Shown piece after piece: positions 14,855 through 17,221 of a stretch of DNA of 64,000 nt. The stretch comes from Armatimonadota bacterium. Its GTDB lineage: Bacteria; Armatimonadota; Hebobacteria; CAIYQO01. The notes beneath the pieces were generated by a model that was not told the DNA's origin, ran no database searches, and saw nothing but the letters and a program-made list of their open reading frames with translations. Positions within the stretch are counted from its first letter, which is position 1. Every line of letters starts with the position of its first letter. The position numbers and the translations under genes are program-made. The DNA lies in assembly GCA_029553475.1 (NCBI GenBank), contig JAKPKV010000126.1, positions 124,001-188,000 on the forward strand. Direction: 5' to 3'.

Positions 14855-14883
14855 CGGGGGATGTTGGGATTGGCGATGTTGGC

Positions 14884-14961
14884 GTGAGGTTAGTGATCAC
14901 CATGGAGCGCGATGAGCATGGGCAGTACGTTGTGCTCATTGACATTGTTGACTACCATTAA
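14884..14961 (+). pseudogene. C-terminal stump of a HigB/RelE-type toxin
   Basis: The last 25 codons read VRLVITMERDEHGQYVVLI then DIVDYH and stop. HigB-family toxins commonly end in a strand followed by a VDYH or LDYH tail, directly before higA. The N-terminal two thirds are missing, since the upstream bases belong to the zinc-finger gene. The stump ends 13 bp before higA. Confidence 0.6.
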
Positions 14962-14974
14962 GTAGAGGTGTGCC

Positions 14975-15262
14975 ATGCGCATTCATCAAGAATATTCACC
15001 CGCCATCCCGATCCATCCCGGTGAGATTCTCCAGGAGGAACTTGACGCGCGGGGGTGGACGCAGAAGGGGTTTGCCGAGCAGATTGGCAGGCCGCCGCAG
15101 CTCATTAACAATATCGTGAATGGCCGGGCAGGTATCTCGGCGGAGACGGCGCTGGATTTTTCGGATGCGTTCGGCACCTCCGCGCAGTTCTGGATGAACC
15201 TGGACAGCAACTACCGGTTGGCGATGGCGCGCAAAAAACGGACGGAGCGAAAAGCGAGTTGA
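14975..15262 (+). CDS. higA: HigA/VapI-family antitoxin (XRE helix-turn-helix)
   Basis: 95 residues. IPIHPGEILQEELDARGWTQKGFAEQIG and the following helices, with FGTSAQFWMNLDSNYRLA, are diagnostic of the HigA family, which binds DNA and neutralises HigB. It begins TAGAGGTGTGCC-ATG. The toxin upstream is only a stump, so this is an orphan antitoxin that may persist as a regulator or anti-addiction gene. Confidence 0.9.
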   Translation: MRIHQEYSPAIPIHPGEILQEELDARGWTQKGFAEQIGRPPQLINNIVNGRAGISAETALDFSDAFGTSAQFWMNLDSNYRLAMARKKRTERKAS

Positions 15263-15298
15263 CGCGGTACTTCACCATTCCATCAGCTTGACAACCCC

Positions 15299-15327
15299 TT
15301 GACAATTAACAGTTGCGGTGCTACTGT
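15299..15327 (+). promoter_or_regulatory. Promoter of the tyrosine operon
   Basis: A perfect -35 TTGACA (15299-15304), a 17-bp spacer and TACTGT (15322-15327). The start would be near 15334, about 20 nt before the leader ATG. Confidence 0.8.
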
Positions 15328-15354
15328 AAGCCCATTCTGAAGGGGGGTTGAGTG

Positions 15355-15426
15355 ATGTCGAATATGTCTCGCTACTATTACTACGCGTCATCACTGTGCT
15401 TCACCTGCGGATTGAAGGTCGGGTAG
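15355..15426 (+). CDS. Tyrosine-rich leader peptide of tRNA-Tyr-tyrS attenuator
   Basis: A 23-codon ORF with AAGGGGGG before the ATG. It reads MSNMSRYYYYASS and then LCFTCGLKVG. Four consecutive Tyr codons (TAC TAT TAC TAC, 15373-15384) precede a transcription terminator and a tRNA-Tyr-tyrS unit. In ribosome-mediated attenuation a ribosome stalled for lack of Tyr-tRNA changes RNA folding. Here a stall would leave 15404-15410 (CCTGCGG) exposed, whereas a ribosome at the stop codon (15424) would cover it. The peptide itself needs no function. Confidence 0.85.
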   Translation: MSNMSRYYYYASSLCFTCGLKVG

Positions 15427-15482
15427 TCTCTCACGTATATCGGCACGACGAACCGCAGGCGAGCATCCTGCGGTTTTTTTTT
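15404..15482 (+). promoter_or_regulatory. Attenuator: antiterminator arm and intrinsic terminator
   Basis: The terminator is a perfect 9-bp stem AACCGCAGG (15451-15459) / CCTGCGGTT (15467-15475) running into nine T (15474-15482). An upstream copy CCTGCGG (15404-15410), inside the leader ORF, can instead pair with CCGCAGG (15453-15459), extended by TT/AA past one bulged base. The two structures are mutually exclusive. The T-run ends 2 nt before the tRNA, so read-through decides whether tRNA-Tyr and tyrS are made. Confidence 0.85.
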
Positions 15483-15484
15483 GT

Positions 15485-15570
15485 GCTGGGGTACCGAAGT
15501 GGCTAAACGGGGCAGACTGTAAATCTGCTGTCTACGGACTACAAAGGTTCGAATCCTTCCTCCGGCACCA
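15485..15570 (+). tRNA. tRNA-Tyr (anticodon GTA)
   Basis: 86 nt. The acceptor stem GCTGGGG/CTCCGGC includes two wobble pairs. The anticodon stem-loop GCAGA-CTGTAAA-TCTGC has GTA at 15519-15521. It has the long variable arm of bacterial tRNA-Tyr, T-loop TTCGAAT, and an encoded CCA end. It lies 31 bp before tyrS and directly after the attenuator, so tRNA and synthetase are probably cotranscribed. Confidence 0.97.
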
Positions 15571-15601
15571 GAATTATTCTGTTACATGACAGGTGGATCT
15601 C

Positions 15602-16831
15602 ATGAGCAAACTGACGATTGCGGCACAGATGGCGGCGATGCGGCGCGGGGTGGTGGATGTGATCTCGTCCGCGGAGCTGGAGGCGAAGCTGAAGCTGGGG
15701 CGGCCGCTGCGGGTGAAGTTCGGCGCCGACCCGAGTGCGCCGGACCTGCACCTGGGGCATTGCGTGCAGTTGCGCGCCCTGCGCCAGATGCAGGAGCTGG
15801 GGCACCAGGTGGTCTTCATCGTGGGCGACTTCACCGCGATGATCGGCGACCCCAGCGGGCGCTCGGCCACGCGGCCGCAGCTCACGCGCACACAGGTGGA
15901 GGAGAACGCCGCCACCTACGTGGCGCAGGCCGACCGCATCCTCGACATCGCCAAGCTGGAGATCCGCTTCAACAGCGAATTCCTCGGCACGCTCACCTCC
16001 GAGGACATGATTCGCCTCGCCGGGAAATTCACCGTGGCGCAGATGCTGGAGCGCGAAGATTTCGCCAGGCGCTTCGCCGAGCAGTCGCCCATCGGGCTGC
16101 ACGAGCTCTTCTACCCGCTGATGCAGGGGTACGATTCCTACGCCATCGCGGCGGATATCGAGTTCGGCGGCACCGATCAGACCTTCAACCTGCTGGTGGG
16201 GCGCGAGATGCAGCGGCTGCACGGCATGCCCGAGCAGGTGGTGATGACGCGCCCGCTCATCCCCGGCACCGACGGCGAGAAGAAGATGTCGAAAAGCCTG
16301 GGCAATTACATCGCCGTGCTGGACAGCCCGGAGGAGATGTTCGGCAAGCTGATGTCGCTGCCCGACCCGCTCATCCCCATGTACTTTGAGTACCTGACCG
16401 ACGTGCCGATGGCGGAGATTGACGCGCTGGCCGCGGCGATGGGCGCCGGTGCGCTGAATCCGCGCGACGCCAAGGACCAACTGGCGCAGGCGATCATCAC
16501 CGAGCTGCACGGCGCGGCGGCGGCGCGCGCGGCGTCCGCCAGCTTCCGCCGCACCTTCAGCGGCCGCGGGCAGACGCTGGACGATTTTCGCGCGGTGGCC
16601 GAGCCGGCGGCGCTGCCGGCGGCGGCGTTCACGGAGGAGGTGCCGCTGGCGAAGCTGATGCACGACATCGGCATGACCGCGTCCAGCGGAGAAGCGCGGC
16701 GGCTCATTGCGGGCGGCGCGGTGTTCATGGACGAGGACAAAGTGACGGATCCGCAGGCCGTCATCACCCCGCGCGAGGGGGCGGTGCTGCGCGCCGGCAA
16801 GCGGCGGGTGGCGGTGCTGGTGAAGGTGTGA
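15602..16831 (+). CDS. tyrS: Tyrosyl-tRNA synthetase
   Basis: 409 residues and complete. Class I signatures are HLGH (50-53, in DPSAPDLHLGHCVQL) and KMSKS (228-232). A C-terminal S4 RNA-binding domain spans about 345-405. The HLGH form and KMSKS context fit the TyrZ/TyrS2-like bacterial branch. It charges tRNA-Tyr using ATP. The ATG at 15602 has AGGTGG 6 nt upstream and is preferred to the GTG at 15593. It sits with tRNA-Tyr behind the tyrosine-codon attenuator. Confidence 0.96.
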   Translation: MSKLTIAAQMAAMRRGVVDVISSAELEAKLKLGRPLRVKFGADPSAPDLHLGHCVQLRALRQMQELGHQVVFIVGDFTAMIGDPSGRSATRPQLTRTQVEENAATYVAQADRILDIAKLEIRFNSEFLGTLTSEDMIRLAGKFTVAQMLEREDFARRFAEQSPIGLHELFYPLMQGYDSYAIAADIEFGGTDQTFNLLVGREMQRLHGMPEQVVMTRPLIPGTDGEKKMSKSLGNYIAVLDSPEEMFGKLMSLPDPLIPMYFEYLTDVPMAEIDALAAAMGAGALNPRDAKDQLAQAIITELHGAAAARAASASFRRTFSGRGQTLDDFRAVAEPAALPAAAFTEEVPLAKLMHDIGMTASSGEARRLIAGGAVFMDEDKVTDPQAVITPREGAVLRAGKRRVAVLVKV

Positions 16832-16906
16832 TGCGCGGATGCATTCGCCCCCTGTGCACCTTCCGCGACGCCGGCGAAAAAAGTTGGAAAATCCAGATAA
16901 ACCCTC

Positions 16907-16934
16907 TTGACCCGCGGCAAAACTGAGGTATAGT
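16907..16934 (+). promoter_or_regulatory. Promoter of the 17-kb RNA candidate
   Basis: TTGACC (16907-16912), 16 bp, TATAGT (16929-16934), just after tyrS. No protein-coding start follows; a terminator-ended structured segment does. Confidence 0.65.
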
Positions 16935-16940
16935 GAGAGT

Positions 16941-17153
16941 AGGAACGCCGAGTAATCAGCGGAAGAGACCGGGACGGAGTCGTCGAGACGTGAGGCGGCC
17001 CAATCGCCGAAAGAGGCGGGAACCCGCATCAGGGGGAGGTTCTCCCCGCAGGTCCCTTTCGTCCTTCCGCCAGCGGGCGAGGCAGCCCGGCTGGACGATG
17101 GTTACCCGGCATGGAAAGGAGAGGCGGTGTGCAGGCCCCGCCTCTCCTTTTAG
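16941..17153 (+). ncRNA. Candidate structured small RNA of about 213 nt, class unknown
   Basis: It is bounded by the promoter above and a 13-bp terminator stem AAAGGAGAGGCGG (17115-17127) / CCGCCTCTCCTTT (17138-17150) ending in TTTT. Internal pairings visible by eye include GCGGAAG (16959-16965) with CTTCCGC (17064-17070), GGGAC (16971-16975) with GTCCC (17052-17056), and local hairpins such as GGGGAGGTTCTCCCC. I could not match it to tmRNA, RNase P RNA, 6S RNA, SRP RNA or a riboswitch from memory. It is not followed by a gene. Confidence 0.6.
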
Positions 17154-17221
17154 TTGTGCGCGCATTGAGATCGTAACCCCGCTCCCCTCTCCCCGCGGAG
17201 GCGTCACGATAGGGTTCGCGT

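What the first reader, a model, noticed from the sequence alone, without database searches (positions are those of the whole stretch)
15299..16831. Tyrosine-codon leader peptide attenuator controlling tRNA-Tyr and tyrS
A sigma-70 promoter is followed by a 23-codon ORF with four Tyr codons in a row. A 9-bp terminator with nine T, a duplicate arm (15404-15410) able to disrupt it, tRNA-Tyr and tyrS come next. A ribosome stalled at 15373-15384 leaves the arm free; a ribosome at the stop covers it. Known tyrS regulation is usually a T-box, and no T-box is seen here. A Tyr leader that co-controls the tRNA and its synthetase gives direct feedback on charged tRNA-Tyr. I know of no described example, but novelty is my inference.
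Basis: partly seen in the sequence, partly recalled or inferred. Interest (0 to 1): 0.93.

Follow-up and report, generated by a model that had tools for sequence, protein, structure and literature searches.

The report
Tyrosine leader attenuator before tRNA-Tyr and tyrS

Summary
A sigma-70-like promoter (15299-15327), a 23-codon ORF with Tyr7-Tyr10 in tandem (15355-15426), a terminator (15450-15476 plus U tract), a tRNA-Tyr(GUA) gene 2 nt after the U tract, and tyrS follow one another. TAYx4 occurs only twice in the 5.27-Mb genome; the other copy lies inside a coding sequence. Folding with a ribosome placed at each codon gives a sharp switch: with codon 12 or earlier in the A site the antiterminator forms (P 0.77-1.0), from codon 15 to 23 it does not. 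All four Tyr codons fall on the read-through side. Best explanation: classical ribosome-mediated (trp/pheST-type) attenuation sensing charged tRNA-Tyr and controlling a second tRNA-Tyr copy together with the only tyrS. No T-box is present. Of 110 Armatimonadota tyrS upstream regions only the window's has a Tyr leader or tRNA-Tyr; the same-genus relative (TyrS 94% identical) lacks them. So there is no covariation support, and the unit is a lineage-specific gain in a variable slot. The mechanism is known; this target pair, the Tyr leader and the phylum were not found in the papers searched. New variant of a known kind; untested experimentally.

The parts
15299..15327 (+). promoter: TTGACA, 17-nt spacer, extended -10 (TG C TACTGT); start of RNA near 15334
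   Evidence: sequence; the consensus scan needs 4/6 in each hexamer and so does not list it
15340..15347 (+). Shine-Dalgarno-like AAGGGGGG, 7 nt before ATG; also on the 5' side of hairpin 1:2
   Evidence: sequence, fold
15355..15426 (+). leader peptide ORF MSNMSRYYYYASSLCFTCGLKVG*
   Evidence: translation
15373..15384 (+). four tandem Tyr codons TAC TAT TAC TAC (control codons)
   Evidence: one of two TAYx4 sites in the genome
15341..15406 (+). hairpin 1:2 (SD/start region with 15389-15406), -19.2 kcal/mol, Tyr codons in and near its loop, takes 3 nt of arm 2
15404..15410 (+). arm 2, CCTGCGG, 5' side of the antiterminator
15404..15459 (+). antiterminator hairpin 2:3, -20.7 kcal/mol
   Evidence: P about 1 with the ribosome stalled on Tyr codons
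15450..15482 (+). intrinsic terminator 3:4 (stem 15450-15476) and U tract 15474-15482
15485..15570 (+). tRNA-Tyr(GUA), CCA encoded, two wobble pairs in the acceptor stem; second copy in the genome
15602..16831 (+). tyrS, the only TyrRS gene found in this genome

Best explanation
A classical ribosome-mediated transcription attenuator. RNA polymerase starts near 15334 and a ribosome translates the 23-codon leader behind it. If charged tRNA-Tyr is plentiful, the ribosome passes Tyr7-Tyr10 and covers arm 2 (15404-15410) and the antiterminator's inner strands while arm 3 is made, so arm 3 pairs with arm 4 and transcription ends at 15474-15482, just before the tRNA gene. If charged tRNA-Tyr is scarce, the ribosome stalls on the Tyr codons. 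It disturbs hairpin 1:2 and leaves arm 2 free to pair with arm 3, so polymerase reads on through tRNA-Tyr and tyrS. The same switch thus raises both the tRNA and its synthetase. Shown: sequence elements, base-pairing, position dependence in folding, genome-wide rarity of the Tyr run. Inferred: promoter use, translation of the leader, stalling, read-through, processing of the tRNA from the joint transcript.
For: Tyr run unique among non-coding sites and placed before the cognate synthetase. Antiterminator probability at nascent end 15460-15468 is 0.99-1.00 for every Tyr codon in the A site, falls between codons 12 and 15, and is 0 for codons 15 to 23, for three footprint sizes; stalls at Phe16 or the Cys codons would give termination, so the response is Tyr-specific. 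Complementary arms. Terminator only 2 nt before the tRNA and no other terminator listed on the + strand before tyrS. No T-box or other Rfam leader. Single-copy tyrS and a separate tuf-linked tRNA-Tyr.
Against: No homologous leader in any relative, so no covariation or codon conservation can be shown. In the full-length leader without a kinetic lock, the terminator wins thermodynamically for several Tyr positions, so the model needs antiterminator formation to be kept co-transcriptionally, as in known attenuators. With the smallest footprint a ribosome sitting at the stop codon gives partial antiterminator formation (0.26-0.54). Total fold energy is ordinary. No expression data.
Confidence: 0.8

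Rival explanations
1. The terminator simply ends transcription from the upstream higA-like gene or a short RNA; the Tyr ORF and the matching arm are chance.
For: Intergenic terminators are common; a 7-nt complement arises in 2% and a 6-nt one in 10% of shuffles; relatives lack the element.
Against: TAYx4 upstream of tyrS by chance is about 6e-5; the ORF has an SD-like site and the switch point lies immediately after the Tyr run; a plain end-of-gene terminator would leave the tRNA 2 nt downstream without a recognisable promoter.
Confidence: 0.1
2. The attenuator works but mainly controls the tRNA-Tyr copy; tyrS has its own promoter inside or after the tRNA gene.
For: tRNAs are cut out of transcripts; tyrS in relatives must be expressed without this unit.
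Against: No sigma-70-like site was listed on the + strand between 15334 and 15602; only 31 nt lie between tRNA and tyrS.
Confidence: 0.15
3. The tRNA-like segment is itself the regulator: TyrRS binds it in its own transcript (as E. coli ThrRS binds a tRNA-like operator, from general knowledge) and represses tyrS.
For: The acceptor stem has two wobble pairs (U-G and G-U) absent from the host's other tRNA-Tyr; a normal tRNA-Tyr exists elsewhere.
Against: Anticodon, A73, G1-C72 and encoded CCA are intact, and ARAGORN and Rfam score it as a normal tRNA, so it should be processed and used.
Confidence: 0.07

Closest known systems
pheM-pheST attenuator of E. coli and relatives (general knowledge; pheST mentioned in PMC1262725)
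   Same: leader peptide with codons of the amino acid that the downstream synthetase charges; terminator/antiterminator choice set by ribosome stalling
   Different: Phe not Tyr; no tRNA gene in the controlled unit; Proteobacteria
trpS and leuS attenuators of Streptomyces (PMC1262725; auxiliary trpS: Vecchione and Sello 2010, cited in PMC4787780)
   Same: classical attenuators on synthetase genes outside Proteobacteria
   Different: Trp/Leu codons, Actinobacteria, no tRNA gene described in the unit in the passages read
His leader peptides before hisS paralogues and his operons in Firmicutes (PMC2965389, PMC9413887)
   Same: independent lineage-specific gains of leader-peptide control, sometimes in place of T-boxes
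   Different: His, Firmicutes
tyrS T-box (RF00230) of Firmicutes
   Same: also raises tyrS when tRNA-Tyr is poorly charged
   Different: senses uncharged tRNA by direct binding; no leader translation; not present here

Membership tests
ribosome-mediated (leader-peptide) transcription attenuator | short ORF with tandem codons of the amino acid linked to the downstream genes | tested here: met
   YYYY before tyrS; only non-coding TAYx4 in the genome; translation itself not shown
ribosome-mediated (leader-peptide) transcription attenuator | intrinsic terminator between leader ORF and genes | tested here: met
   15450-15482
ribosome-mediated (leader-peptide) transcription attenuator | alternative antiterminator whose formation depends on ribosome position at the control codons | tested here: met
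   in silico only
ribosome-mediated (leader-peptide) transcription attenuator | hairpin 1:2 that competes with the antiterminator | tested here: inconclusive
   15341-15406, -19.2 kcal/mol, but it takes only 3 nt of arm 2, and without a ribosome the antiterminator still forms at 15460, so the protector is weak
ribosome-mediated (leader-peptide) transcription attenuator | supporting, not defining: conservation of codons and arms among relatives | tested here: inconclusive
   no relative has the element at all, so conservation cannot be judged
ribosome-mediated (leader-peptide) transcription attenuator | read-through rises when the cognate charged tRNA is limiting | not testable with these tools
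   needs a reporter assay
T-box riboswitch (RF00230) | covariance-model match upstream of tyrS | tested here: not met
   none in the whole genome

The most novel reading that the evidence does not exclude
A self-correcting circuit in which one sensor of charged tRNA-Tyr controls both the tRNA gene and its synthetase, gained recently as a small unit in a lineage that has no detectable T-boxes. Unlike a T-box, it can respond to a shortage of the tRNA itself as well as of the synthetase or of tyrosine.
Probability: 0.6. Interest if true: 0.65.

Novelty: new variant of a known kind. Interest (0 to 1): 0.52.

Why it matters
Leader-peptide attenuators on synthetase genes are described in the papers read for Phe, Trp, Leu and His in Proteobacteria, Actinobacteria and Firmicutes. 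I found no report of a Tyr one, of one covering a tRNA gene with its synthetase, or of one in Armatimonadota (nine searches of an open-access library; a relevant 2010 survey of attenuation of amino-acid and aminoacyl-tRNA operons, doi 10.1134/S0026893310010164, is cited in PMC4833913 but was not read). If true, it is a compact, testable case of a tRNA gene under feedback by its own charging level, and of attenuation arising anew in a lineage without T-boxes.

Tried and rejected
T-box or other known leader at the locus: none. Same element in relatives: 109 other Armatimonadota tyrS upstream regions scanned, no Tyr-run leader before tyrS and no tRNA-Tyr upstream (the one other pattern hit, YCYPYY in L156 more than 360 nt upstream, has no tandem run of three and no terminator); one relative, G060, has tRNA-Tyr just downstream of tyrS. 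Eighty tyrS loci from many phyla: no Tyr-rich leader by the regular expression used. A phage or plasmid source for the unit: only the tRNA matches; the part before it has no plasmid match; a Tyr-run-plus-tRNA pattern has no match in viral contigs. A T4-like phage contig shares 43 consecutive tRNA bases, but the acceptor stem of the unit's tRNA follows the host family type (GCyGGGG...CyCCGGC), so duplication of the host gene with divergence and foreign origin both remain open. Wider use of leaders in this genome: Phe x4 gave seven sites, all in open stretches of 94-753 codons, none a short leader; Trp x3 is too common to use. Class relatives carry T-boxes on ilvD and valS; the family's ilvD and valS upstream regions show no obvious leader peptide in their place.

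Full report
OBSERVATION. The window lies in a 5.27-Mb genome, G000 contig 159, of the phylum Armatimonadota (the contig of same-phylum genome G016 is a named Chthonomonadia MAG contig). The promoter has a perfect -35 and a poor but extended -10. The leader ORF is MSNMSRYYYYASSLCFTCGLKVG. The terminator stem is 15450-15476 and nine T run 15474-15482. tRNA-Tyr (GUA) begins at 15485, two bases after the T run, and tyrS at 15602 (TIGR00234).

IS IT MORE THAN CHANCE. Four tandem Tyr codons occur twice in both strands of the genome; the reversed control pattern occurs 12 times. The other site lies inside a coding sequence. A sense hit within 300 nt upstream of tyrS is expected at about 6e-5. The arm able to displace the terminator is a 7-nt exact complement, seen in 2.1% of shuffles. 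The overall folding energy is ordinary (z -0.42), so the case rests on the specific arrangement, not on stability.

HOW IT WORKS. Three competing hairpins exist: 1:2 (15341-15406, -19.2 kcal/mol), 2:3 (15404-15459, -20.7) and 3:4 (15450-15476, -15.0). I placed a ribosome at every codon with three footprint sizes and folded the nascent RNA at the point where arm 3 has emerged. The antiterminator forms with probability 0.77 to 1.0 for A-site codons 2-12 and 0 for codons 15-23; the change falls at codons 12-14, depending on the footprint. All four Tyr codons give read-through; the later Phe and Cys codons do not. When the full leader is allowed to re-equilibrate, the terminator often wins, so the read-through state must be fixed before arm 4 is made. 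This kinetic step is inferred from known attenuators. Without a ribosome the antiterminator also forms at 15460 (0.998), so there is little silencing of untranslated leaders in this simple model.

WHAT IS CONTROLLED. No other terminator is listed on the + strand between the U tract and tyrS. G000 has one tyrS and a second, ordinary tRNA-Tyr in the usual tRNA-Tyr/tRNA-Thr/tuf cluster. The unit's tRNA is 69/87 identical to that copy and keeps G1-C72, A73, GUA and CCA, with two wobble pairs in the acceptor stem. The unit therefore adds a charging-responsive tRNA-Tyr and makes the only tyrS responsive. A leader reads the supply of charged tRNA, so it can answer a shortage of the tRNA itself, of the synthetase or of tyrosine (inference).

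EVOLUTION. The order accA - zinc-finger membrane protein - (variable) - tyrS is shared with a same-genus and a same-family genome. In the same-genus genome (TyrS 94% identical) another small ORF fills the slot and there is no leader or tRNA; in the same-family genome the slot is empty. Similarity to the same-genus genome stops at about 14860. The slot in G000, 14860-15590, holds an orphan HigA-like gene plus the unit and has GC 51-62% against mostly 63-77% on either side. Among 109 other Armatimonadota tyrS upstream regions none has a Tyr leader of this kind or an upstream tRNA-Tyr, and 100 of those loci scanned with Rfam have no known cis-regulator. T-boxes are widespread in the phylum (151 of 291 genomes) and in the class, on ilvD and valS where read, but none is found in the three genomes of this family.

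KNOWN SYSTEMS. Leader-peptide attenuators on synthetase genes are described for pheST, trpS and leuS (PMC1262725) and hisS paralogues (PMC2965389). The last paper stated in 2010 that none had been shown outside Proteobacteria and Actinobacteria before it, and considered repeated independent origin. Tyrosine-specific RNA control in those papers is by T-box. I found no Tyr leader and no unit joining a tRNA gene and its synthetase under one attenuator. Absence from an open-access library is weak evidence.

VERDICT. A convincing predicted attenuator by a known mechanism, with a new target pair in a new phylum, found in one genome only and untested.

Noticed in passing
window 16905-17158 (+), also L004 and L005 minus strand: Downstream of tyrS: a sigma-70-like promoter (TTGACC ... 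TATAGT) and a highly structured RNA of about 215 nt (z -3.9) ending in a strong hairpin with TTTT, conserved in the same-genus and same-family genomes (73% mean column identity), no Rfam match at gathering score. A long rod with a central open region, possibly a 6S-like RNA.
   Followed up: partly
phylum-wide: T-boxes occur in 151 of 291 Armatimonadota genomes and in all 11 other genomes of the class, but in none of the three held members of the window's family.
   Followed up: partly
window 14975-15262: Orphan HigA-type antitoxin gene (TIGR02607) without a recognisable HigB next to it, in the same low-GC slot as the attenuator unit.
   Followed up: no
L257:566-652 (IMGVR_UViG_3300001683_001820): tRNA cluster (Leu, Tyr, Thr) on a T4-like phage contig; its tRNA-Tyr shares 43 consecutive bases with the unit's tRNA-Tyr.
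   Followed up: partly
G060:C2:140217-141504: tRNA-Tyr lies directly downstream of tyrS on the same strand in another Armatimonadota genome: a second, different pairing of the two genes.
   Followed up: no
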